11,201 nt of DNA. It comes from Clostridia bacterium (lineage in GTDB: Bacteria > Bacillota_A > Clostridia > Peptostreptococcales > Anaerovoracaceae). Below, piece by piece: positions 1 to 11,201 of this stretch (its first letter is position 1; each line of letters starts with the position of its first letter). The notes under the pieces were generated by a model, which was given only the letters and a program-made list of their open reading frames with translations, was not told the origin of the DNA and did not search any database. The position numbers and the translations under genes were made by a program. The stretch spans positions 1 through 11,201 of the forward strand of contig JAKSSI010000021.1 of NCBI GenBank assembly GCA_024403175.1. Direction: 5' to 3'.

Positions 1-128
1 ACTGTTATTTTTTCGCCCATAATATCGGTTAACATAACATTTTTTCCGTCAATTTCAATCTTGCAAACGTATTCGCAGATTTTATTTTCTGTGCCGTTCT
101 CTACAGCGTAAACAGTAGACAAACACAT
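1..128 (-). CDS. cooT: CooT-family nickel-binding protein, partial (C-terminal end outside window)
   Basis: My own translation of the minus strand from the ATG at 128-126 gives an open frame that begins MCLSTVYAVENG and runs off the window edge after 42 complete codons. The family is usually about 60-70 residues long, so roughly the last third is missing. The MCLSTVY start, with Cys2 right after the initiator Met, is the hallmark of CooT, a small dimeric nickel protein tied to CO dehydrogenase maturation; Cys2 is the reported nickel ligand. The start lies one base past the stop codon of the upstream His-rich gene, with an AAGAAGG ribosome site inside that gene's end, so the two are surely translated together. 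Context (a nickel-rich CODH/ACS locus) supports the call. The exact role, nickel storage or delivery, is inferred. Confidence 0.8.
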   Translation of the reverse strand, partial: MCLSTVYAVENGTENKICEYVCKIEIDGKNVMLTDIMGEKIT

Positions 129-129
129 A

Positions 130-453
130 TTATTTACCTTCTTTCAGGAGCTGAAGTCCCTTTTCAAGGATATCATTTCCGTCATAGAATTTTTCGAGTG
201 CTTCGCTAATAAGCTTTGCAGATTCATCGTTTCCTGAAGCTTCAAGCTTATGAGCTAAATCGTGAAGTTCATCAGCGTGGTGACGATTGTGGTCGAGCAT
301 ATAAGATACTAATGCTGTAGCCTGTTCAACACTTTCGAATTCGCTTACATCGTTGTGTGTATGTTCTTGGGTATGAGCATGTCCGTCACCATGGGTATGA
401 GCGTGATAATGTGTATGAGTATGAGTACCGTGATCGTGTTCTCCAATATGCAT
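130..453 (-). CDS. Histidine-rich small protein, probable nickel storage/chaperone
   Basis: A 107-residue protein in two parts. Residues 1-35 are a metal-binding tail with 13 histidines, mostly in alternating His-Thr/His-Ala steps (His2, 6, 8, 11, 13, 15, 17, 19, 21, 25, 27, 31, 33). Residues 40-107 look like a helical domain, with a second His cluster at 55-64 (His55, 58, 59 and 64). No signal peptide or membrane segment is visible, so it should be cytoplasmic. It is co-translated with the CooT-like gene 1 base downstream. By analogy with the His-rich proteins CooJ and HypB, which hold Ni2+ for CODH or hydrogenase, nickel binding is the likely role; it is not a sequence homologue of CooJ that I can demonstrate. 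Zinc or cobalt binding cannot be excluded. The ribosome site AAAGGGGGA at 459-467 supports the start. Confidence 0.75.
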   Translation of the reverse strand: MHIGEHDHGTHTHTHYHAHTHGDGHAHTQEHTHNDVSEFESVEQATALVSYMLDHNRHHADELHDLAHKLEASGNDESAKLISEALEKFYDGNDILEKGLQLLKEGK

Positions 454-473
454 AATTATCCCCCTTTAACATT

Positions 474-504
474 AAAAATGGGTGAGGCAGAATTTGCCCC
501 ACCC
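474..504 (-). terminator. Intercistronic hairpin terminator after the corrinoid protein gene
   Basis: On the minus strand a GC-rich stem (GGGTGGGGCA pairing with TGCCTCACCC, one mismatch, short AT loop; bases 504-480) is followed by five T residues (478-474). It lies 14 bases past the corrinoid gene stop and ends only about 7 bases before the ribosome site of the His-rich gene, so read-through or a promoter inside the corrinoid gene is needed to express the two nickel genes. Confidence 0.75.
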
Positions 505-518
505 AAGATCGAATCTAA

Positions 519-1145
519 TTAGCAAGCAAGTTCCTTTGCAAGAGCTGCAGCAGAAGCAGCATCTGTGGAATATGCATCAGCACCAATTTCATCAGCGAAA
601 GCCTGTGTAATTGGAGCGCCACCAACCATGATCTTAACCTGGCTCTTAAGTCCAGCATCGATGATGCACTTTACAGTGTTTCTCATGGATTCCATTGTTG
701 TTGTGAGAAGTGCAGATACACCTACAACCTTGCATTCTGGATGAGCCTTAATTGTTTCTACGAACTTTTCTGCAGGAACGTCGATGCCGAGGTCGATTAC
801 GTCAAAACCAGCAGCTTCTACCATAATAGCTACGAGGTTCTTACCGATATCGTGGAGGTCGCCTGCAACTGTTCCGATGATATATGTACCATACTTAGCA
901 CCAGCATCAGAAGCCATGAGTGGCTTGAGAACTCCTACACCGCGCTGCATTGTCTTAGCTGCGATGAGCATTTCTGGAACGTAGATTTCGTTCTTCTGGA
1001 ACTTTTCACCTACTTCGTCCATAGCTACTGCCATAGAATCGAGGATTTCTTCAGGTGTTGCACCGCCGTCAAGTGCTTCCTGAACTACCTGCTGTACTGC
1101 CTTAAGCTTACCAGCAGCAACTGTTTCCTTTACACTTACAACCAT
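519..1145 (-). CDS. MttC/MtbC-like corrinoid (B12-binding) methyl-carrier protein
   Basis: A 208-residue cytoplasmic protein with the standard two-domain form of cognate corrinoid proteins of methyltransferase systems. Residues ~1-85 are the four-helix cap (EALDGGATPEEIL, then the NEIYVPEMLIAAKTM stretch). Residues ~86-208 are the Rossmann-like cobalamin domain, with the DLHDIGKN motif at 96-103 (His98 is the expected lower cobalt ligand), Ser144/Leu146 in VSALL, and GGAP at 175-178. The family carries a methyl group on cobalt between a substrate-specific methyltransferase (MttB, MtaB or MtbB type) and an acceptor methyltransferase; no such partner gene lies in the window. Its place beside nickel genes and opposite a CODH/ACS operon suggests a job in the reductive acetyl-CoA pathway, but the methyl source is unknown. 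An AAAGGAGA ribosome site precedes the ATG. Confidence 0.9.
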   Translation of the reverse strand: MVVSVKETVAAGKLKAVQQVVQEALDGGATPEEILDSMAVAMDEVGEKFQKNEIYVPEMLIAAKTMQRGVGVLKPLMASDAGAKYGTYIIGTVAGDLHDIGKNLVAIMVEAAGFDVIDLGIDVPAEKFVETIKAHPECKVVGVSALLTTTMESMRNTVKCIIDAGLKSQVKIMVGGAPITQAFADEIGADAYSTDAASAAALAKELAC

Positions 1146-1206
1146 TTTAAATTTCTCCTTTCAAAAGAAATGCATATAAAAATGTTTTTTAATTTATTAC
1201 CCTGCC

Positions 1207-1235
1207 ATTATAAGTCTTTGTATTCAATATTTCAT
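1207..1235 (-). promoter_or_regulatory. Candidate sigma-A promoter of the corrinoid protein gene
   Basis: On the minus strand a perfect TATAAT (1212-1207) lies about 62 bases before the corrinoid gene start. At 17-base spacing the -35 is only ATGAAA (1235-1230), a poor match; a perfect TTGACA (1241-1236) is present but too far away (23 bases). The weak -35 next to a palindrome suggests an activated or regulated promoter. Confidence 0.4.
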
Positions 1236-1250
1236 TGTCAAAATTAACAA
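1235..1250. promoter_or_regulatory. Palindromic operator candidate (TTGT-N8-ACAA), copy 1
   Basis: The 16-mer TTGTCAAAATTAACAA is the core of a longer perfect inverted repeat, CATTGT-N8-ACAATG (1233-1252). It sits just upstream of the candidate corrinoid gene promoter. It shares its outer bases and spacing with the copies at 1345-1360, 2983-2998 and 7986-8001. Its function as a regulator binding site is inferred. Confidence 0.4.
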
Positions 1251-1329
1251 TGTTTACAAAAATCACAAGTTAAAAACTGAATTCCTGGAACCATTTTGTT
1301 CAGTTAACCGCTAACAAGCCTTGATTTTT

Positions 1330-1388
1330 CAACGCTTACAGTGTTTGTAATATTCTACAACATTGCTATTGACTTTTTTTAAGCGTTG
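1330..1388. repeat. Inverted repeat CAACGCTTA ... TAAGCGTTG in the divergent spacer
   Basis: Two perfect 9-base inverted arms, CAACGCTTA at 1330-1338 and TAAGCGTTG at 1380-1388, lie 50 bases apart (arm centre to arm centre) and flank both the TTGT-N8-ACAA element and the candidate -35 of the regulator. Flanking T- and A-runs extend the symmetry loosely. It could be a pair of operator half-sites for DNA looping, or chance. Confidence 0.4.
1345..1360. promoter_or_regulatory. Palindromic operator candidate (TTGTAATATTCTACAA), copy 2
   Basis: A near-perfect palindrome: TTGTA and TACAA arms with a 6-base centre. It matches the 16-mer at 7986-8001 in front of the CODH operon at 14 of 16 bases. It lies 8 bases upstream of the TTGACT hexamer before the PucR-type regulator gene, as would suit autoregulation. 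Confidence 0.5.
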
Positions 1389-1397
1389 TGAAAAAAT
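1369..1397 (+). promoter_or_regulatory. Weak candidate promoter of the PucR-type regulator
   Basis: TTGACT at 1369-1374 is a good -35. The region 17-19 bases on (AAAAAT or AAATAT, 1392-1399) is a poor -10. The ribosome site AAAGGAG at 1406-1412 follows closely, so the leader would be only a few bases long if this promoter is used. An alternative start further upstream is possible. Confidence 0.3.
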
Positions 1398-1418
1398 ATT
1401 AGTGCAAAGGAGATCGCT

Positions 1419-2945
1419 ATGCAAATTACATTAAATATATTGTTGGATTTTCTAAAGAATTATAATCCACAGTGCAATGTTACAAAGAAAAATAAAAGTT
1501 TTTCCGGCGTCGGTATAGCCACAAAATCAACACAAGGCTTATATTCCGACCAGGTTTATGTTTTTGCGTATAAACCTTTCATTGAACTCGAACATCGTGA
1601 CAATTCTGTATATATAATTGTTGTAAAGAAAGAACATGATGTAATACCTGAAGATGCAGATCTTACAAATACTATCGTATGCAATTACGAAGGTAGTGTA
1701 ATAGACTTCTTCTCATATGTTCAAGCAAGCTTTTCGGTTATTTTTAACTGGTGCAGCAAAATGGATGAATACCTTATTAGAAATAGATCCATCCAAGATG
1801 TACTCTCCCTTTCTGAATCTGTAATCGGAAACACTATAACAATTTCCGACTCTTCCTTTGCCCTCGTAGCATATACAGAAAATATTGAAACTGATTGCAA
1901 ACTCACATCTAGACTTATTCAAAAAGGCTATCATGACCAAGAAGCAATCGATCTTTTCAACAAGCGCAAAGCCCCTGAAAGATGGAGAGATGCAATAGAT
2001 ATCTATGTGAGTACTGAATGCGACATTTCAGACTACCCTATTGTCTGTAAAGTAATTCATTATTTTGATAACTATTATTCTCACATCATAATGCTTTGCA
2101 ATAATAAGCCATTAACACCAGGTCTTACAGACTTATTCAAGTTACTTGCAGACCACCTAATGGTTTCATTTGAAAAGCAATGGCTCGATAATAACCAGAT
2201 GCCACACATTCACGACTCTCTCATTCTTTCTTTAACAGGCCCGAATAACCTGTCAGAAGAAACAACAAGAAATCGTGCAAGAAACTCAGGCTTACCTTTC
2301 CTTGCAAAGTTTGTTTTCCTTGTTATAGAAACAGACGATTCCAGCAACATTATGCTTCAGCGTATTGAAAGAGAGCTTGCAAACGTTTATCCAGATGCAA
2401 AGATTACTCTGCACAAGCAAGAACTTATGGTGTTGTTTGCACAGCCATTAAGAGGCAAAGACAAATCCGGAGAAATCATCGAACAGTTCAAGCCTATCTT
2501 AAGAAGATACAATGCACGTTGCGGTGTTTCTGATTTATTCACAAGCTTAATGGAACTGAGCACTGCAAACGAACAGGCAAAACTTGCCCTCTCCGGAAGC
2601 ATTTCAGGCGAACCTACATACTTCAATGATTGCTACATTGGAAAGCTTCTTACATCAGATCCGCTCACAACAAAACTCGCAACAACAACTGTTGCAAGCA
2701 AGGTATTAAACGAGCTTTCCGAATATGATAAAAAGCATAGCACAAACAATTTAGAACTCAAAAAAACTTATCTTGAGTTCGACAGAAAAGCCACAGAAAC
2801 TGCACAGCTTATGCACATGCACAGAAACAATGTAATCTACAGAATCGGCAGAATTTGCGAACAAGTAAACATCGATTTAGATGATCCAAAAGTCCGCTTA
2901 AGACTGCTCCTAGCTTATGAAGTAATGAATCATACTGAAGACTAA
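1419..2945 (+). CDS. PucR/CdaR-family transcriptional regulator
   Basis: A 508-residue cytoplasmic protein. The C-terminal ~60 residues (about 448-503: YLEFDRKATETAQLMHMHRN and the following NNVIYRI at 470-476, then DLDDPKVRLRLLLAYEV) are the typical helix-turn-helix of the PucR/CdaR family. Residues ~297-395 resemble the degenerate GGDEF-like domain these proteins carry before the helix-turn-helix. Residues ~1-260 are a less recognisable sensor region, possibly PAS/GAF-like around 125-250; the ligand cannot be read from the sequence. The gene is divergent from the corrinoid gene and convergent with the CODH/ACS operon, so control of one or both is the natural guess. The start is set by AAAGGAG at 1406-1412. 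Specific role (activator or repressor, CO, nickel, corrinoid or methyl donor sensing) is unknown. Confidence 0.85.
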   Translation: MQITLNILLDFLKNYNPQCNVTKKNKSFSGVGIATKSTQGLYSDQVYVFAYKPFIELEHRDNSVYIIVVKKEHDVIPEDADLTNTIVCNYEGSVIDFFSYVQASFSVIFNWCSKMDEYLIRNRSIQDVLSLSESVIGNTITISDSSFALVAYTENIETDCKLTSRLIQKGYHDQEAIDLFNKRKAPERWRDAIDIYVSTECDISDYPIVCKVIHYFDNYYSHIIMLCNNKPLTPGLTDLFKLLADHLMVSFEKQWLDNNQMPHIHDSLILSLTGPNNLSEETTRNRARNSGLPFLAKFVFLVIETDDSSNIMLQRIERELANVYPDAKITLHKQELMVLFAQPLRGKDKSGEIIEQFKPILRRYNARCGVSDLFTSLMELSTANEQAKLALSGSISGEPTYFNDCYIGKLLTSDPLTTKLATTTVASKVLNELSEYDKKHSTNNLELKKTYLEFDRKATETAQLMHMHRNNVIYRIGRICEQVNIDLDDPKVRLRLLLAYEVMNHTED

Positions 2946-2982
2946 TTACTAAAAATCAGGCTATTCTAAAACCATTAGTTTC

Positions 2983-2998
2983 TTGTTAAAAATCACAA
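2983..2998. promoter_or_regulatory. TTGT-N8-ACAA element, copy 3 (convergent spacer)
   Basis: The 16-mer TTGTTAAAAATCACAA matches copy 1 at 13 of 16 bases. It lies downstream of both the regulator and acsB, where a promoter operator is not expected, so it may be a chance product of AT-rich sequence or a low-affinity site. Confidence 0.2.
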
Positions 2999-3010
2999 TA
3001 TAAATGTTAA

Positions 3011-3040
3011 AAAAGACCTCCGAAAAATCGGAGGTCTTTT
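3011..3040. terminator. Bidirectional intrinsic terminator between regulator and acsB
   Basis: A perfect 13-base inverted repeat (AAAAGACCTCCGA at 3011-3023 and TCGGAGGTCTTTT at 3028-3040) with a 4-base loop. The stem ends in A-runs on one side and T-runs on the other, so it can stop transcription of the plus-strand regulator and of the minus-strand CODH/ACS operon that meet here. Confidence 0.92.
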
Positions 3041-3074
3041 AGTTTATATATTGTTAATACAATCTTATCAAGTC

Positions 3075-5213
3075 TTACATCATTGGTTCCATACCGAGAA
3101 CTGGGTGGTTCTTTTCTGTGAGGAAGCCCATGAGTTCTTCTACGTCTGTTGTGATAGTTTCGTCTGCAATCATATCAGCGAAGTTATCAATTCCGTAGAG
3201 TTCCTTAGCTGTTTCGTTGAGCTTATCTCCAAGCTGATCCTTTAATGCCTTTGGAAGCCATACAATTCTTCCTGGGCCGCCTTCTGCAGCGCAGAACTTC
3301 TTGGATGTAATGAACTGCTTACCATGTCCCATGAAGCCTGGTGTCTGAACACCACCACCTGTCATGGAAGCCATTTCAGAGAATGTCATACCAAGTGGTG
3401 TCATTCCAGCGTGTTCACGGTTTGTAATTACAACGCCGTTAGACATTGGTTCAATACCGCAAATACATTCGAAGCAACCGCAAGATGTCATTGGGTCTTC
3501 CATGATGGAGTAAAGTGTAACTCTTTCAAGTGCACCGTGGGAGTACTTGTTAACAGCTTCGTTTACGTCTTCATATGCACCGAGTCTTTCGTCTGTGCAC
3601 TGGTTCTTTGTAACAATCTGACATGGACCGTTTGGATCGAGTTCGTGTGTAGCCTTAGCATCGAACCAGGATACAGCACCGCAAAGACCAAGTCTTTCTG
3701 GTGTAACGATACAAACGTGGGATGGTGAGAATGCCTGGCAAAGGATACATGTGTAGAAGTTATCTACAGATTCGTCGTTGATAGACTTAAGTCTTTCGTC
3801 ACGAATTGCGAATGTTTCATTTGCACGAGCTCTTTCAGCCTTAGCGCCTTCTGGTGTTGTATAAATCTTAACCTGGCACTTATCAACTACTGCTTCGTAT
3901 TCTTCCTTAACCTTAGCGTAGAGGATTTCACCGAGATGCTTAGCTCTGAAGCCAGCTTCGAATGCGCCCTTAGATACACGGATACGGATCATATCACGCT
4001 GACCAGTGTGCATGATACCTTCTGCACAGTTGATCATATGGTGGAACTTTCTTTCTACTACAGGTTCGAAGTCTGTATGCCAGTTCTTACCGTTAACTTC
4101 TACTGTCATTGTGAGGCAAATCTTTTCGCCAACATCAAATTCATCGAAGTCCTTACCGATAAGTTCAATCTTGTGATCTTCAATTTCGGAAAGTTCAACT
4201 GTCTTACAGAATTCGCAGCAGTCAACTCTAGAACCATCTGCTTCAATCTGCATGTCAGCCTTACGAATAATTTCACCATCGAATGGGTTACCATAAGTAA
4301 CCGGAATAAGGATTTCTGTAACCTTAATCTTAATTCCCTTAGCTTCGAGGGATGTTTCAATCCAATCCTTTGTGTCATCGTTGATAACGATTGACTTTGG
4401 AACTGGCCACATATCGTTTCTGTCGTTTGTAACTACTGGGAAGCCCATCTTTACAGCGCCAGCACCGCAAGCGAGTGTGAGGTCGTCAACTGGTGCATAT
4501 GCGTTTACGAAAGCGTTAATTCTTTCGAATGTGTAAGCGTGGAATCCTTCCCAATCGCCGAATTCAACGTTACCGAAGATTCTAGCAGCTCTTACTACAA
4601 GGGAAATGATGTGTCCTACGGACCAAATATCTTCACCAACTGGTACTACTCTTACGTCGAAGTTCATTGTAATGCCCTTTTCTACGAGCTGTTCAATGAT
4701 TCCTCCGATAAGGAATACGAAGATACCTCTGGACTGGTAACCCTTAACGATTTCAACTGCTTCATCTGCGGATGGAGCTGGTCCAATCATTACTACGAAA
4801 CCAGGGATATCCTTTGTTACGAGTGGAACACCGAGTGTTCTTACTTCTGCGTCAGAGAAGTGACCGTGATAGTTAGTTCCTTCATATGGTGTCTGTGTGT
4901 AAGCGTACTTGCAAGCTTCAATTACTTCTGCGCAAATAGCTGTTGCAACACCAGAGAAGAACATGTCTTTTGTCTTATATTCTCTTGTCATTAAAGCCTT
5001 GATTGCTGGAAGAGCATTCTTAAGTTCTCCAAGAGTCTGAACCTTAATTCCAAGATAGCAGTAAATGCAAGCAAGGTAGTAAGCTGTTTCAGGAAGAGTC
5101 ATTGCTGCGTCTGCACCAAGATCTGCGATAGCCTTATTAACAGCTTCTTCTGCCTTTGCGTACATTTCGTCTGAGCCCTTAAAAGCTCTTTCAAAAAGTC
5201 GAACCATTGCCAT
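3075..5213 (-). CDS. acsB: Acetyl-CoA synthase catalytic subunit (CODH/ACS beta)
   Basis: This 712-residue enzyme condenses CO, a corrinoid-bound methyl group and CoA into acetyl-CoA at the Ni-Ni-[4Fe-4S] A-cluster. All six A-cluster cysteines are present: Cys489, Cys492, Cys501 and Cys511 (in the FYTCILCQAFSPSHVCIV stretch and the following LGLCGAVSW), plus the distal-nickel CGC motif Cys578/Cys580 in MTSCGCFE. Each is offset by the same 17 residues from the Moorella thermoacetica cysteines as I recall them, so the core is collinear and the shortening lies in the N-terminus, before PETAYYL (41-47). That domain contacts CODH. The three-domain bacterial layout is kept, unlike the shorter archaeal CdhC. 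It is last in the acsA-cooC-acsB operon, 20 bases after cooC, with an AAGGAG site; a second in-frame ATG two codons on is a possible start. Confidence 0.96.
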   Translation of the reverse strand: MAMVRLFERAFKGSDEMYAKAEEAVNKAIADLGADAAMTLPETAYYLACIYCYLGIKVQTLGELKNALPAIKALMTREYKTKDMFFSGVATAICAEVIEACKYAYTQTPYEGTNYHGHFSDAEVRTLGVPLVTKDIPGFVVMIGPAPSADEAVEIVKGYQSRGIFVFLIGGIIEQLVEKGITMNFDVRVVPVGEDIWSVGHIISLVVRAARIFGNVEFGDWEGFHAYTFERINAFVNAYAPVDDLTLACGAGAVKMGFPVVTNDRNDMWPVPKSIVINDDTKDWIETSLEAKGIKIKVTEILIPVTYGNPFDGEIIRKADMQIEADGSRVDCCEFCKTVELSEIEDHKIELIGKDFDEFDVGEKICLTMTVEVNGKNWHTDFEPVVERKFHHMINCAEGIMHTGQRDMIRIRVSKGAFEAGFRAKHLGEILYAKVKEEYEAVVDKCQVKIYTTPEGAKAERARANETFAIRDERLKSINDESVDNFYTCILCQAFSPSHVCIVTPERLGLCGAVSWFDAKATHELDPNGPCQIVTKNQCTDERLGAYEDVNEAVNKYSHGALERVTLYSIMEDPMTSCGCFECICGIEPMSNGVVITNREHAGMTPLGMTFSEMASMTGGGVQTPGFMGHGKQFITSKKFCAAEGGPGRIVWLPKALKDQLGDKLNETAKELYGIDNFADMIADETITTDVEELMGFLTEKNHPVLGMEPMM

Positions 5214-5233
5214 TGCTATTCTTTTCTCCTTAA

Positions 5234-5998
5234 TTATTTCTGATCTATACGGGCTTTAATCTGTTTGATTTCTTCTACAGCTTTGGCTGAAACATCATAA
5301 GGGGAAACTCCCTTTCTGTCTGCTTCTATTACCTCTTCGTTGTAGCTCATAAAGCCGAGTATATTTTCTGCAGGTATGTTTTGTTTGATAAATTCTATAT
5401 CTTCTTCAGTTCTGATCTTATTTGCAACTACATTTACTTTTGTAATCTTTAAATCAGCAGCCAGTTGCTTTACCTTTTCGTAAGTCTGAATACTTCTTGC
5501 ACCTGGTTCTACAACTACAATGAACTGATCCATGCAGCTTGCAGTACCACGACCAAGGTGTTCAAGGCCTGCTTCCATATCCATAATTACTACGTCGTCT
5601 CTTCTGAGCACGAGAGAAGAAATTACAGACTTGAGCATTACATGCTCTGGGCAAACACATCCGCTTCCGCCTGTTTCAACAGTTCCCATAACAAGGAGCT
5701 TAACGCCGTTAATTTCCTTTGAGAACTTATCAGGAATATCAGATACCTGTGGATTTAATTTAAAGAATTTATTGTCGGAATTGGCACCCGTTCTTTCTTC
5801 AACAAGATCTCTCATTTTAGAAATAGGAACGATAGAGTTAACCTCTTCCTGTGTAAGACCAAGAGCTAAACCGAGGTTTGCATCTGGATCTACATCTGCT
5901 GCAAGTACTACTCTGCCTTCGTCGGCATAAAGTCTTGCAAGTGTGGAAGATAATGTAGTTTTACCAACTCCGCCTTTTCCTGTGACTGCAATCTTCAT
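5234..5998 (-). CDS. cooC: CooC/AcsF-type nickel-insertion ATPase
   Basis: A 254-residue MinD/ParA-like P-loop ATPase that matures the nickel sites of CODH and/or ACS. It begins MKIAVTGKGGVGKTT with the deviant Walker A at residues 7-15. Cys114 and Cys116 in GCVCPEH are the conserved CxC pair that binds nickel at the CooC dimer interface. VIMDMEAGLEHLGRG (around 137-151) is the switch II/Walker B region. The frame stays open 14 codons further upstream, but that extension would overlap the end of the CODH gene and lacks homology to the family start, so the ATG at 5998 is chosen; it sits one base after the CODH stop, and no good ribosome site is visible, so translation is probably coupled. CooC versus AcsF cannot be told apart from sequence alone; position between acsA and acsB fits AcsF. 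Confidence 0.92.
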   Translation of the reverse strand: MKIAVTGKGGVGKTTLSSTLARLYADEGRVVLAADVDPDANLGLALGLTQEEVNSIVPISKMRDLVEERTGANSDNKFFKLNPQVSDIPDKFSKEINGVKLLVMGTVETGGSGCVCPEHVMLKSVISSLVLRRDDVVIMDMEAGLEHLGRGTASCMDQFIVVVEPGARSIQTYEKVKQLAADLKITKVNVVANKIRTEEDIEFIKQNIPAENILGFMSYNEEVIEADRKGVSPYDVSAKAVEEIKQIKARIDQK

Positions 5999-5999
5999 A

Positions 6000-7904
6000 T
6001 TAGATACCGAGAGCGTCTCTCTTTGCTTCGATGTCGGCAATCATCTTGTCGCATAAAGCATCGATGTCTGTTTCTACGATGAAGTGTGCTTCGAGGTTCT
6101 GCTGAGCCCAGCCGTTTTCGCCCTGGAGGCAATCTGTAATCTTAGCAGATCCCTTTGTGTATGGGTCTACACCAAGGTATGTGTTGATACCTGTTGCTAC
6201 TACGTAGTTACCGATGGATACAGCCTTTTCAGACATCCATTCTGGAGCACATCCGCAGAGTGGGAGTTCGGAGATATCGCATCCCCAGTCCATAGCAAGG
6301 TCAGATGCGAGAAGCATCATTCTGGAAATATCTACGCAAGAACCCATGTGGAGTACTGGTGGAATACCAACGAGGTCGCAAACTCTTCTAAGACCTTCGC
6401 CGCAATACTTCTTTGCGTCTGGATCGAGAAGACCTGCCTTACCAGCAGCCTGAGCGGAGCAACCAGAAACAACAACGATAATGTCGTTTTCGAGGAGCTT
6501 CTTCATGAGTTCGATGTGAGCTGTGTCTGGACGAACCTTAGGGTTGTTGCAACCTACCATAGCAACTGCACCACGGAGAACGCCAGCCTTAACTACGTCT
6601 GCGAGTGGCTTGAGTGTGCCATATTCATCTACGTGAGAGTTGCAAACACCATCAAGTTCCTTCTTAATAGCTTCGAGAGAGTAACCTACTCTAGCCTTTG
6701 TCTTAAGCTGTGGAATATTTACAAGTTCAGGCTTTCTGTTCTTGAAATTTTCGATAGCCATTTCTACAATCTGTCTGCCCTTTTCAGCTGCAGTTTCTTC
6801 GGAGAATTCGATGTATTCTGCATCTGGCATCTTAGCGATTGGAGATGTTGTGATGAACTTTGTGTGGAAGCACTTGGAGAGAGGTCCGAGTGCTGGGAAG
6901 ATGCACTGTACGTCTACTACGATTGCTTCGCAAGCGCCTGTAAGTACTACGTTTTCCTGAGCAAGGAAGTTACCTGCCATTGGAATACCGTGACGCATTG
7001 TTACTTCGTTAGCTGTACAGCAAACGCCGGATACTGTGATACCCTTAGCGCCATACTTCTTTGCAAGAGCGATCATTTCTGGATCGTTTGCATAGAATAC
7101 TACCATTTCGGAAAGTGATGGATCGTGACCGTGAACAACGATGTTTACGTTTTCAGCTTCCATAACGCCGATGTTAGCTTCTGTGTTGATTGGCTTTGGT
7201 GTTCCGAAGAGTACGTCAGAGAATTCTGTACCGCACATAGAACCGCCCCAACCGTCGCAAAGACCTGCACGGAAGGACTGGTGTACAAGTGCTTCAGGAA
7301 GTGAAGAACAACCCATGTGTGTCATGTGGAGGGACTGAGATACTTCTCTGTCGATTGCTCTTGGTTCGATTCCTGTCTTCTTCCAAATGTCCTGAGTGTG
7401 CTGTGGAGCTCTGGAAATCCATCTAGATACGCCGAATGGCTTACCATATTCCATAAGAGCTACTTCAGCTGTTTCGTGAGCAAGGTCATAAATGTCCTTA
7501 CCTTCTGTTTCAATACCCCATTCCTTAGCAATTTTCTTGAGCTTTTCAGGATCCTTTACCTGATAAGCGCCACCTTCCTTTGCCTGATAGAGTGTGTGGC
7601 AGATTGCACGACCGTGGTCGGAGTGTGTAGCTGCACCACCTGCAGTAAATCTGAGGTAGTTTCTTCCTACAATACCGTCAACGTCGCATCCGCAGATTCC
7701 GCGAGGAGCCTTTGGAGTAATTCTGCATGGTCCCATGCTGCAAATACGGCAGCAAGTACCTTCTTCACCAAACTTACAATGTGGAGTCTGGTTCTTTACT
7801 CTCTGCTGCCATGTGTCAGCGTTGAGTTTTGCCGCAGTCTCGAGGAGGCTTGCTGTAGCTGCCTCGTTCTGTTCGACTGTGATAAGATTGTCCCAATTAG
7901 CCAT
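6000..7904 (-). CDS. acsA: Ni-Fe carbon monoxide dehydrogenase catalytic subunit (CODH/ACS alpha-partner)
   Basis: A 634-residue enzyme, close to the size of CooS/AcsA proteins, that interconverts CO2 and CO for acetyl-CoA synthase. N-terminal cysteines for the D and B clusters are present: Cys43 and Cys51, then Cys52, Cys55, Cys60 and Cys71 or Cys73 (GTCCRICSMGPCRI ... GICGC). C-cluster ligands are also complete: His260 (HGHDP), Cys295 (SGVCCTANE), Cys334 (DVQCIFP), Cys452 (GCNNPK), Cys482 (SGCSAQAAGKAG) and Cys523 (HMGSCVD). Lys560, the catalytic lysine by alignment, is in MSEKAVSIG. The gene is first in the acsA-cooC-acsB operon, which argues for the ACS-linked form (acsA) over a stand-alone CooS. 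The AGGAGA site 6-7 bases before the ATG fixes the start. The electron carrier is not encoded here. Confidence 0.96.
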   Translation of the reverse strand: MANWDNLITVEQNEAATASLLETAAKLNADTWQQRVKNQTPHCKFGEEGTCCRICSMGPCRITPKAPRGICGCDVDGIVGRNYLRFTAGGAATHSDHGRAICHTLYQAKEGGAYQVKDPEKLKKIAKEWGIETEGKDIYDLAHETAEVALMEYGKPFGVSRWISRAPQHTQDIWKKTGIEPRAIDREVSQSLHMTHMGCSSLPEALVHQSFRAGLCDGWGGSMCGTEFSDVLFGTPKPINTEANIGVMEAENVNIVVHGHDPSLSEMVVFYANDPEMIALAKKYGAKGITVSGVCCTANEVTMRHGIPMAGNFLAQENVVLTGACEAIVVDVQCIFPALGPLSKCFHTKFITTSPIAKMPDAEYIEFSEETAAEKGRQIVEMAIENFKNRKPELVNIPQLKTKARVGYSLEAIKKELDGVCNSHVDEYGTLKPLADVVKAGVLRGAVAMVGCNNPKVRPDTAHIELMKKLLENDIIVVVSGCSAQAAGKAGLLDPDAKKYCGEGLRRVCDLVGIPPVLHMGSCVDISRMMLLASDLAMDWGCDISELPLCGCAPEWMSEKAVSIGNYVVATGINTYLGVDPYTKGSAKITDCLQGENGWAQQNLEAHFIVETDIDALCDKMIADIEAKRDALGI

Positions 7905-7952
7905 TGGATTTCTCCTATTCTTTGATTTCTAAAATATTGCATTAACAACCAC

Positions 7953-7964
7953 CTAAAATTTTAG
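7953..7964. promoter_or_regulatory. 12-base perfect palindrome CTAAAATTTTAG at the acsA promoter
   Basis: The palindrome overlaps the end of the candidate -10 of the CODH operon and covers its likely transcription start. It could be an operator for a second regulator or simply an AT-rich start region. Confidence 0.3.
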
Positions 7965-7991
7965 TATAAAGATGTCAACAATTCATTGTAA
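7963..7991 (-). promoter_or_regulatory. Candidate promoter of the acsA-cooC-acsB operon
   Basis: On the minus strand TATACT (7968-7963) is a good -10, and 17 bases upstream TTACAA (7991-7986) is a modest -35 that lies inside the palindromic element at 7986-8001. A protein bound there would overlap the -35. A start near 7956 gives a leader of about 50 bases. Confidence 0.5.
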
Positions 7992-8001
7992 CATCCTACA
8001 A
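7986..8001. promoter_or_regulatory. Palindromic operator candidate (TTGTAACATCCTACAA), copy 4
   Basis: Perfect inverted arms ATTGTA and TACAAT flank a 6-base centre (7985-8002). It is 14 of 16 bases identical to the element before the PucR-type regulator (1345-1360) and covers the proposed -35 of the CODH operon. It is the best candidate for the regulator's target. Confidence 0.55.
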
Positions 8002-8008
8002 TAAACGC

Positions 8009-8025
8009 AACCCCTTATAGGGGTT
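8009..8025. other. GC-rich hairpin in the acsA/atp divergent spacer
   Basis: AACCCCT-TAT-AGGGGTT forms a 7-base stem with a 3-base loop and is followed on the plus strand by TTTT in all. It lies upstream of both operons' candidate promoters, so it is more likely a boundary or protein site than a functional terminator, though a weak plus-strand terminator is possible. Confidence 0.4.
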
Positions 8026-8042
8026 TTGAACATTGCTAAATT

Positions 8043-8065
8043 ATTATCAAGTTTGGCAAGATAAT
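8043..8065. promoter_or_regulatory. Inverted repeat ATTATC-N11-GATAAT upstream of the atp promoter
   Basis: Perfect 6-base arms, 39 bases before the -35 of the ATP synthase operon. It is spaced as an activator or repressor site could be; the binding protein is not known. Short arms in AT-rich sequence make chance possible. Confidence 0.3.
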
Positions 8066-8103
8066 CGTGCCCCCGTTTGATTTATATTTAACGCAAATAC
8101 TCG

Positions 8104-8132
8104 TTGTAAATAACCTTTCGTACACTTATAAT
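8104..8132 (+). promoter_or_regulatory. Sigma-A-type promoter of the ATP synthase operon
   Basis: TTGTAA (8104-8109), 17 bases, then a perfect TATAAT (8127-8132). Transcription would start near 8139, giving a leader of about 47 bases before the first gene, and excludes the earlier in-frame ATG at 8138 as a useful start. Confidence 0.75.
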
Positions 8133-8185
8133 AGTAAATGTTAGATTACGCGTGTATATATATTAGTATTTTAGGAAGCCACTTT

Positions 8186-8455
8186 ATGTATGAAAATTTC
8201 CAAATAATAGTAAAAGGAATATCATTCATAGGCCAAGTAGGATTTATGATTATAACTCCCCCACTTTGCCTTGGAGTATTGGCTTCTTTTTTAATGAAAC
8301 GCTTTGGAATAGGCATTTGGTTAATGCTTTTATTCCTTACTATAGGTATTCTCACATCCATTGCTACTGTTTGGGATTTCTTTAAAGCCGAACAAAAACG
8401 CATCGAAAAAGAAGCCGAAAAGCACAAAGTTATTACATATAATAACCACCTTTAA
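8186..8455 (+). CDS. atpZ: AtpZ-like small membrane protein of the ATP synthase operon
   Basis: An 89-residue protein with two predicted membrane helices (about residues 13-35 and 42-63; GQVGFMIITPPLCLGVLASF and WLMLLFLTIGILTSIATVW) and a charged C-terminal tail (KAEQKRIEKEAEKHK). Size, topology and position as first gene of an atp operon match the AtpZ/ATPase gene 1 family, whose exact role is unsettled (Mg2+/Ca2+ uptake or rotor assembly has been proposed, with AtpI). The frame is open upstream to an ATG at 8138, but the ATG at 8186 has AGGAAG at the right distance and lies beyond the predicted transcription start. Assignment rests on context and topology more than on strong motifs. Confidence 0.7.
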   Translation: MYENFQIIVKGISFIGQVGFMIITPPLCLGVLASFLMKRFGIGIWLMLLFLTIGILTSIATVWDFFKAEQKRIEKEAEKHKVITYNNHL

Positions 8456-8486
8456 TTTTGCCATTAGCGGCACTAAGTAGATAATT

Positions 8487-8876
8487 ATGAATAATGAAGT
8501 AATCACAAAAGAAGTTAAACGTATAGCATTCGGAACAATAGTACTCGACGTAGTCATGATACTCGTCTTCTTTATTCTTAAGAAGTTCAGTATCGGCGTT
8601 ATTATCGGCGCTATCATCGGTTCCATCTTCGCAATCGGCAATTTCGCCTACCTCGGCTACTGCATCCAAAAGGCTGTAGAAAAAGAGGACGGCGCTAAGG
8701 CATATCTGAACAGGACTTACATTGTGCGCATGTTCCTTCACGCTGCATGCATCATCTTGGCAGTACTCCTGCCATTTGAAAACACAATTGCAGGAATTGT
8801 TCCGTTATTTTTTCCAAGACTTGTAATCTACATAATGCAAATCTTGGGTATGTATAAACCGGAAAAGGAGAATTAA
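8487..8876 (+). CDS. atpI: ATP synthase subunit I (AtpI)
   Basis: A 129-residue membrane protein with four predicted helices, in two pairs separated by a charged loop (about 12-31, 36-58, then 82-98 and 101-118). The linker CIQKAVEKEDGAKAYLNRTYIVR is the charged loop. Length and helix pattern fit the AtpI family, which helps the c-ring assemble. It is the second gene of the operon, 31 bases after the AtpZ-like gene and 3 bases before atpB. Its own ribosome site is weak (AAGTAG), so its level may be low, as suits an assembly factor. Confidence 0.8.
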   Translation: MNNEVITKEVKRIAFGTIVLDVVMILVFFILKKFSIGVIIGAIIGSIFAIGNFAYLGYCIQKAVEKEDGAKAYLNRTYIVRMFLHAACIILAVLLPFENTIAGIVPLFFPRLVIYIMQILGMYKPEKEN

Positions 8877-8879
8877 AGT

Positions 8880-9928
<1,049 letters not shown>

Positions 9929-9967
9929 TACGACACACGTTATCGCTAAACTATTAAGGAGGAAGCT

Positions 9968-10465
9968 ATGTATCAACAACTGGTTAGCTTTCAATATTGG
10001 ACTTTTATAGCTCAGCTCTGTAACTTCTTTATTCAGATCTGGCTTTTCAAGAAGTTCTTATTCAAACCGGTAAAAAACATAATAGAACAACGCCAGCAGA
10101 AGTTGAATTCCATCCTTGTAGAGGCACAGGATGCTAAAGATACAGCCGTTGCAACAAAGAAGGAATACGAAGATGCACTTCGTGATGCTAGACAAGAAGC
10201 TAAGGAAATCACAGAACAGGCTATTGTTTCAGCTAAAACAAGAAGTGAACAGATTCTTTCCGAAACTAAGGACGATGTAGCAGCTATCAGAAAGAAAGCT
10301 TCAAACGACATCGAACTTGAACGTCAGAAAGCAATGGCTCAGGCTAAGAATGACATTTCAACTCTGGCAGTTGAACTTGCAGCGAAGATCGTTAACAAAG
10401 AAATCGATGAAAATACTCATAAGGATTTAATTGACGACTTCATTAAAGATTTAGGTGAAGCATAA
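9968..10465 (+). CDS. atpF: F-type ATP synthase subunit b
   Basis: A 165-residue peripheral-stalk protein with one N-terminal membrane helix (about residues 10-30), then a long charged coiled coil (about 38-140: EQRQQKLNSILVEAQDAKDT and on) and a C-terminal delta-binding end (LAAKIVNKEID). It holds the catalytic head still relative to subunit a. It is preceded by AAGGAGG and ends in TAATG, its stop codon sharing one base with the atpH start, so the two are translationally coupled in a fixed ratio. Confidence 0.95.
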   Translation: MYQQLVSFQYWTFIAQLCNFFIQIWLFKKFLFKPVKNIIEQRQQKLNSILVEAQDAKDTAVATKKEYEDALRDARQEAKEITEQAIVSAKTRSEQILSETKDDVAAIRKKASNDIELERQKAMAQAKNDISTLAVELAAKIVNKEIDENTHKDLIDDFIKDLGEA

Positions 10466-10998
10466 TGACAAAGTTTGCTAAAACATATGGCGGAGCGCTT
10501 TATGATCTTGCAAAAGAAGAAGGCTTAGAGACAGAAATCCTTGAAGACCTCAAACAGGTTATTAACACAGTAAAGGAAGTCCCTGAATACCTCAAGCTCC
10601 TGTCTACTCCTGCCCTCTCTAAAGAGGAAAAAGCAGCTTTAGTAGATGAGTCATGGGGTCAGACGCTCCACCCTTATACAATCAACTTTCTTAAGTTAAT
10701 CGGAGATTTAAATCATGTAAATGATTTCCTCGATTGCAAGAGAGAGTTCCATGAACGTTATGACAAAGATCATAACATCGTGTGGGTTCGTGCATATTCT
10801 GCACTTGCCATGACTGACACACAGAAAGAACAGCTCAAGACTATCCTTCAGGAAAAGCTCGGCAAGACTGTTCATCTTACAGGTTATGTTGACCCTTCTG
10901 TTATCGGCGGCGTTAAGCTCAACGTAGAAGGAATGCAGTACGACAACACAGTTGCATACCACTTCAACAACCTAAGTCAGCAATTAAAGAAATTATAA
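10465..10998 (+). CDS. atpH: F-type ATP synthase subunit delta
   Basis: A 177-residue OSCP/delta protein that joins the b stalk to the alpha subunits. The N-terminal helical part (KTYGGALYDLAKEEG, residues 5-19) and the C-terminal GYVDPSVIGGVKLNVEGMQYD stretch (about 140-160), holding the family signature PSVIGG, are intact. Length is normal and the reading frame ends with a stop at 10998. In Bacillota atpA follows directly; here it does not, and the bacterial sequence appears to break soon after. Confidence 0.95.
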   Translation: MTKFAKTYGGALYDLAKEEGLETEILEDLKQVINTVKEVPEYLKLLSTPALSKEEKAALVDESWGQTLHPYTINFLKLIGDLNHVNDFLDCKREFHERYDKDHNIVWVRAYSALAMTDTQKEQLKTILQEKLGKTVHLTGYVDPSVIGGVKLNVEGMQYDNTVAYHFNNLSQQLKKL

Positions 10999-11127
10999 AG
11001 CCAAAGTTAACTTGCTACTAAATCCGTAAAATTCCTGAAGTCATGTAATGAATAGCAATGTAGATAAATGTGGAGGAGGGCACAGCAGAAATCTAACTCA
11101 CCCTTGGATATGTTTGGGTAAGTCTTT
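10999..11127. other. Unassigned sequence between atpH and the SINE; likely chimeric junction
   Basis: No atpA start is found, though atpA is expected here. A GGAGGAGGG at 11072-11080 would suit an atpA ribosome site, but no ATG follows at the right distance. The bacterial-to-mammalian junction therefore lies somewhere in this stretch, possibly close to 11090, or at its beginning if the whole stretch is host DNA. Confidence 0.6.
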
Positions 11128-11201
11128 AAGATCCCCTGGAGAAGGGAATGGCAACCCACTCCAATATTCTTGCCTGGAGAATTCCATGGACAGAGGAGCC
11201 T
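11128..11201 (+). mobile_element. Ruminant Bov-tA/ART2-type SINE fragment (host DNA)
   Basis: The stretch carrying GATCCCCTGGAGAAGG, GGCAACCCACTCCA, TATTCTTGCCTGGAGAAT and CCATGGACAGAGGAGCCT is the well-known core of the tRNA-derived ruminant SINE family (Bov-tA, Bov-A2, ART2A), in sense orientation and cut off by the window end. Recognition is from memory of the consensus. Such repeats occur in cattle, sheep, goat and deer, never in bacteria, so this is host sequence joined to the bacterial contig. Confidence 0.93.

What the first reader, a model, noticed from the sequence alone, without database searches (positions are those of the whole stretch)
10999..11201. Bacterial operon ends in ruminant host SINE: chimeric contig end
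The atp operon breaks after atpH, where atpA is expected, and the last ~75 bases are a clear Bov-tA/ART2-type SINE fragment. This points to a ruminant gut origin and an assembly chimera (or host read mis-joined at the contig tip), not a bacterial mobile element. Any database entry that treats this contig end as bacterial is wrong there.
Basis: partly seen in the sequence, partly recalled or inferred. Interest (0 to 1): 0.75.

Follow-up and report, generated by a model that had tools for sequence, protein, structure and literature searches.

The report
Contig end fused to ruminant DNA
The last 74 bases of this bacterial sequence are a piece of a repeat that fills ruminant genomes such as those of cattle, most likely stuck on by mistake during sequencing or assembly; it is an ordinary contamination artefact, not bacterial biology.

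Summary
Window 11128-11201 is a 74-base fragment of a ruminant Bov-tA-type SINE: 71/74 to a copy in L001, and 26/27, 28/30 and 28/30 to cattle motifs printed in a paper. The bacterial atp genes are intact to the atpH stop at 10998. In 33 of 34 fetched relatives atpA follows atpH within 8-133 bases. Here 203 bases follow with no credible atpA.

Best explanation: a chimera of gut-bacterial and host DNA at the contig tip, made by the assembler or in the library. An exact 22-base SINE pattern was absent from the species-genome collection, and the SINE end matched 0 of 396 genomes of one order (control).

Not shown: which ruminant; where in 10999-11128 the join lies; whether it is computational or physical; that the window's end is the contig's end. 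No reads and no ruminant genome were available. The 129 bases at 10999-11127 match nothing searched and are only inferred to be mostly host DNA. Novelty and interest are low.

The parts
8138..10998 (+). F0F1-ATP synthase operon, first half: atpZ-like (8138-8455), atpI-like (8487-8876), atpB (8880-9623), atpE (9668-9928), atpF (9968-10465), atpH (10465-10998)
   Evidence: NCBIfam: E, F and H over a curated cut-off; B strong (E 6e-53) but under every listed cut-off; I weak and under cut-off. atpZ-like: Pfam PF09527 under cut-off. atpH full length against P0070/P0071
10999..11127 (.). Unassigned stretch that should hold the join: a short bacterial intergenic remnant (inferred, tens of bases) followed by non-repeat host DNA (inferred)
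   Evidence: No match in phages, plasmids or E. coli genomes; no significant match in the 80 AcsB loci (best E 0.67); no credible AtpA; no similarity above shuffles to the SINE's tRNA-like head; relatives' atpH-atpA gaps have a median of 21 bases by a longest-ORF rule (counted)
11128..11201 (+). Ruminant Bov-tA/Bov-A-type SINE fragment, cut by the end of the window
   Evidence: 71/74 to L001 3543-3470; cattle motifs 26/27, 28/30, 28/30 and cattle flank 25/27; shuffles
11048..11201 (+). Spurious open frame reading through the SINE (no stop before the window ends); 6034 of 8000 scored database proteins match it; no Pfam family
11007..11201 (-). Spurious open frame on the other strand of the SINE; 69 of 82 candidate proteins match at E<=0.001

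Best explanation
The contig end is a chimera, computational or physical. A gut bacterium's contig (uncultured Clostridia/Oscillospiraceae-like, with CODH/ACS genes) stopped just after atpH, and a short stretch of a ruminant's nuclear DNA, ending inside a Bov-tA-type SINE, was attached to it. The likely route (inferred) is a contig tip extended through a chimeric read or a short shared overlap into host DNA. Extension would then stop where a SINE with some hundreds of thousands of copies makes the assembly graph branch, which would explain why the sequence ends inside the repeat. Shown: SINE identity, intact atpH, missing atpA. Inferred: the joining step, the host nature of 10999-11127, and that the window's end is the contig's end.
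For: SINE match far above chance and tied to ruminants by printed sequences: cattle motifs and a cattle flank, plus goat and sheep primers. atpA follows atpH in 33 of 34 fetched relatives but not here. No exact 22-mer SINE match in the collection of one genome for each of 84,980 species; 0 of 396 genomes of one order, while the same query finds 3 copies in the 8354-base record of L001; none in phages, plasmids or E. coli genomes. A second microbial/ruminant chimera was found in IMG/VR (L001). Cow and sheep fragments in a bacterial genome record are documented (PMC4243333, abstract and Results section read).
Against: No reads, coverage or whole genome were available for the window, so the join itself is not shown to be artificial. 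CpG depletion is not decisive: the 176-base CpG-free run at the end is only the third longest in the window, and 77 of 10825 173-base windows in 1-10998 also lack CpG. 10999-11127 has no direct host match. The exact 22-mer scan is strict, and that collection leaves out contigs under 3,000 bases, so its zero is weaker than it looks. One of 34 relatives (L114) also lacks atpA after atpH.
Confidence: 0.96

Rival explanations
1. Sub-version of the best explanation (its odds are part of the 0.96): a physical chimera. Bacterial and host DNA fragments were ligated or template-switched during library making, and the assembler reported that molecule faithfully.
For: Would give the same sequence; fits a low-coverage contig tip (inferred, no call bears on it).
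Against: Nothing tested separates it from assembler error. A single chimeric molecule seldom wins in an assembly unless coverage is very low (general knowledge).
Confidence: 0.35
2. Real horizontal transfer: a ruminant DNA segment with a SINE is integrated downstream of atpH in the living bacterium.
For: Formally not excluded, since no reads are held. Gene order after atpH differs in one relative (L114).
Against: It would part atpH from the rest of the ATP synthase operon. The repeat was not found in the species-genome collection by an exact 22-mer or in 396 genomes of one order. Its place at the very tip of the window is typical of a join artefact.
Confidence: 0.01
3. The window's end is bacterial DNA that resembles a SINE by chance, or a bacterial mobile element.
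For: None found.
Against: 71/74 identity and shuffle control; no match in the bacterial, plasmid and phage collections searched; identity to printed cattle sequences.
Confidence: 0.005

Closest known systems
Bov-tA / Bov-A2 SINEs of ruminants (tRNA-derived head is recalled; RTE-dependent)
   Same: 74 bases of the body starting at AAGATCCCC; 71/74 to a fuller copy in L001; cattle printed matches. PMC8620236 (passages seen) calls Bov-A2 and Bov-tA old, RTE-dependent ruminant SINE families and used 279,199 Bov-tA copies of the cattle assembly.
   Different: Only a fragment; head and 3' tail are missing, so the subfamily cannot be told. No repeat-library consensus was available; the name rests on recall plus the printed matches.
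Cow and sheep sequences in the Neisseria gonorrhoeae TCDC-NG08107 record (PMC4243333; abstract and Results section read)
   Same: Ruminant DNA in a bacterial genome record (five segments of 200-634 bp).
   Different: There an isolate genome whose contigs, the authors concluded, had been concatenated; here a metagenome-like contig with the host DNA fused to one tip.
IMG/VR contig IMGVR_UViG_3300023220_000993 (L001)
   Same: SINE-bearing DNA of ruminant type fused to a microbial (phage) sequence.
   Different: About 3.6 kb with three SINE matches there, joined next to a 64-base direct repeat of the phage part.

Membership tests
Bov-tA/Bov-A ruminant SINE | Sequence identity to the SINE body | tested here: met
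   71/74 to the L001 copy; cattle motifs 26/27, 28/30, 28/30; cattle flank 25/27; sheep primer 17/17 of the aligned bases
Bov-tA/Bov-A ruminant SINE | tRNA-derived head upstream of the body | tested here: not met
   The sequence just before 11128 is no more like the L001 copy's head than shuffles: local alignment, 540 of 1000 reach the score; alignment anchored at the body, four lengths, 319-629 of 1000 reach it. A truncated or head-less copy, or a join at the head/body boundary
Bov-tA/Bov-A ruminant SINE | 3' tail and target-site duplications | not testable with these tools
   The window ends inside the element
Host-contamination chimera in an assembly | Foreign host sequence joined to the assembly's own sequence | tested here: met
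Host-contamination chimera in an assembly | Coverage step or no read pairs across the join | not testable with these tools
   No reads; no genome held for the window
Bacterial mobile element | Related copies in bacterial, plasmid or phage DNA | tested here: not met
   No match in 50,697 phage, 72,556 plasmid or 20,395 E. coli records, no exact 22-mer in the species-genome collection, 0 of 396 genomes

The most novel reading that the evidence does not exclude
A genuine transfer of ruminant nuclear DNA carrying a SINE into the atp operon of a gut bacterium living in that host.
Probability: 0.01. Interest if true: 0.85.

Novelty: not a real feature. Interest (0 to 1): 0.1.

Why it matters
It matters as data hygiene. 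Bases from about 10999 on should be trimmed from any bacterial record of this contig, and open frames predicted there are spurious. The protein database searched holds thousands of entries that match the SINE frame (6034 of 8000 scored candidates; the 120 listed have no name and no Pfam domain), and one public 'viral' contig carries the same repeat (L001). A SINE-motif scan of contig tips would be a cheap screen. The host SINE also suggests a ruminant-associated sample.

Tried and rejected
Rfam scan of 10400-11201: no match even at E<=1. CpG depletion as a marker of the join: not distinctive. Homology of the stretch before 11128 to the SINE head: not above shuffles. Looking for the same host locus through proteins: I read 10 of the 69 minus-strand hits and 12 of the 120 listed plus-strand hits; by eye they share the SINE part only. 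Some listed alignments do run further at lower identity (P0001 covers 81% of the minus frame, P0179 and P0217 100% of the plus frame, 61-62% identity), which I take for chance resemblance to the SINE head in view. Literature: 18-20-base strings and SINE peptides gave 0 papers each. Strings of 14-15 bases gave 6 papers: 4 on ruminants, read by passage; PMC5522200, read by passage, is a cloning primer; PMC9032946 was not read. The listings were seen as listings only, apart from PMC4243333 and PMC8620236. Two further viral contigs patterns gave only L001 and nothing. AcsB in the family of G001: 17 of 197 genomes, not used further.

The paper's methods say the upstream sequences came from Bos taurus, so they are cattle, as reported now; checkpoint note 1 still says goat. 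The scan of the rest of the window stopped at 10800 and was redone to 10998, with the same score.

Full report
What is there. The window carries a cooS-cooC-acsB (CODH/ACS) block on the minus strand and, divergently, atp genes on the plus strand. By NCBIfam, atpE, atpF and atpH exceed a curated cut-off; atpB is strong (E 6e-53) but under every cut-off listed; the atpI-like gene is weak. An atpZ-like frame has a Pfam match below cut-off. The label cooC is recalled; one search shows MinD/ParA-type ATPase matches for it. In 10 of 10 acsB loci that I examined of the 80, CooC and CooS matches lie beside AcsB, partial in two where the contig ends. AtpH (10465-10998) is full length: 98% and 84% identical to P0070 and P0071 over the whole length, all three ending in the same residues. 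The bacterial coding sequence is therefore intact to the stop codon at 10998.

What should follow. AtpH was found in 4 of 10 genomes that hold acsB relatives and in 142 of 394 genomes of one order. The 30 best matches of the latter plus the 4 were fetched: 34 loci. In 33 of 34 an AtpA frame follows atpH. By blastp 32 of these are 75-100% identical to the one in L082, which is itself among the 32; L086's was also checked by NCBIfam as atpA; L110's is cut at 130 aa and was judged from its N-terminus only. The gaps are 8-133 bases by a longest-ORF rule, and I count their median as 21. The exception, L114, has a 5'-nucleotidase-like gene after atpH. In the window 203 bases follow atpH with no credible AtpA match: the best E was 0.041 over 10 residues from the middle of the protein. 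Three of the frames also align their first residues weakly (7 of 19, E 0.73-1.1) at 10962-11018, mostly inside atpH.

What is there instead. 11128-11201 aligns 71/74, without gaps, to a SINE copy in L001, and at 90% and 86% over 63 and 71 positions to two further copies in L001. The score of 133 compares with a maximum of 34 in 1000 dinucleotide shuffles and 21 in 1-10998 on both strands. No tool labelled L001 as ruminant; its copy has the head and body that I recall for Bov-tA. The independent tie to ruminants comes from printed sequences. PMC4337102 (passages) lists motifs found by MEME upstream of 105 genes, the sequences taken from Bos taurus. Three of them cover 11128-11185 at 26/27, 28/30 and 28/30; of a fourth only 8 bases align, at the very end of the window, no better than elsewhere. 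A cattle NFIA flank matches 25/27, its upstream 30 bases not aligning (PMC11046187, passage). A sheep UCP1 primer matches 17/17 over 17 of its 20 bases (PMC5924531, passage). A goat ACSL5 primer shares a 14-base string (PMC13240680, passage) and was not scored. Both strands of the SINE carry spurious open frames: the plus frame matches 6034 of 8000 scored database proteins, and of the 120 listed none has a name or a Pfam domain; the minus frame matches 69 of 82 candidates.

Where the repeat is not. No match in phages, plasmids or E. coli genomes. No exact match of a 22-mer in the collection of one genome for each of 84,980 species; this is strict, and that collection holds no contigs under 3,000 bases. 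No match of the last 102 bases in 396 genomes of one order; the same query finds 3 copies in the record of L001, so the search can work, though on a far smaller record. One viral contig of the 2.9 million in the collection holds the 22-mer.

Most likely mechanism. Extension then stopped inside a repeat, where the graph branches. That step would explain why the sequence ends within the SINE, but it is inference, as is the assumption that the window ends where the contig ends. Because bacterial atpH-atpA gaps are mostly short, the join probably lies within a few tens of bases of 10998, and most of 10999-11127 would be unique host DNA. This too is inference: the stretch matches nothing I could search, does not resemble the SINE head beyond shuffles, and its CpG content is not distinctive. 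A join right at 11127/11128, the head/body boundary of the SINE, is not excluded.

Origin. Among the 80 acsB loci kept, the nearest is from horse faeces (85%), followed at 73-81% by uncultured Clostridia, Oscillospiraceae and Lachnospiraceae MAGs whose titles include goat rectum, roe deer and sheep gut, 'RUG' isolates and others, such as one named 'Lapin'. A ruminant gut sample is plausible, but the bacterium alone does not prove it.

Verdict. Open for lack of reads and of a ruminant genome: the exact join, the host species, and whether the error is computational or physical. It is a known type of artefact (PMC4243333 reports cow and sheep DNA in a bacterial genome record; abstract and Results section read) and of low interest beyond the advice to trim the contig. 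I chose 'not a real feature' because the junction is, in all likelihood, not present in any organism; the SINE fragment itself is a member of a known ruminant family.

Noticed in passing
L001 (IMGVR_UViG_3300023220_000993), 1-3605 and 3606-8354: A public 'viral' contig looks like a chimera itself: a phage part (Phage_F capsid in two pieces, Rep; a microvirus by inference) with a 64-base direct repeat at 3606-3669 and 8291-8354, fused at about 3605 to some 3.6 kb that carries three matches to the ruminant SINE. The capsid frame 3342-4322 runs straight into a SINE.
   Followed up: partly
window 5234-8455: The atp genes start divergently from cooS-cooC-acsB. None of the 80 acsB loci shows atp genes nearby, though some of these contigs end before the matching place. 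Of 10 acsB genomes, 5 gave neither an AtpH nor an AtpB-family match (G001, G003-G006), G002 an AtpB-family match only and G008 AtpH only. An unusual arrangement, incomplete genomes, or, less likely, a second join in 7905-8137; not resolved.
   Followed up: partly
L114: In one relative atpH is followed by a 5'-nucleotidase-like gene instead of atpA: a split atp operon or another misjoin.
   Followed up: no
PMC4337102, Table 3 (passages): MEME motifs that the paper links to transcription factors (e.g. motif 1, 6.8e-576, 59 sites) appear to be pieces of this ruminant SINE (motifs 1, 6 and 7 match window 11128-11185), which may explain their extreme E-values; the transcription-factor reading could be a repeat artefact.
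   Followed up: partly
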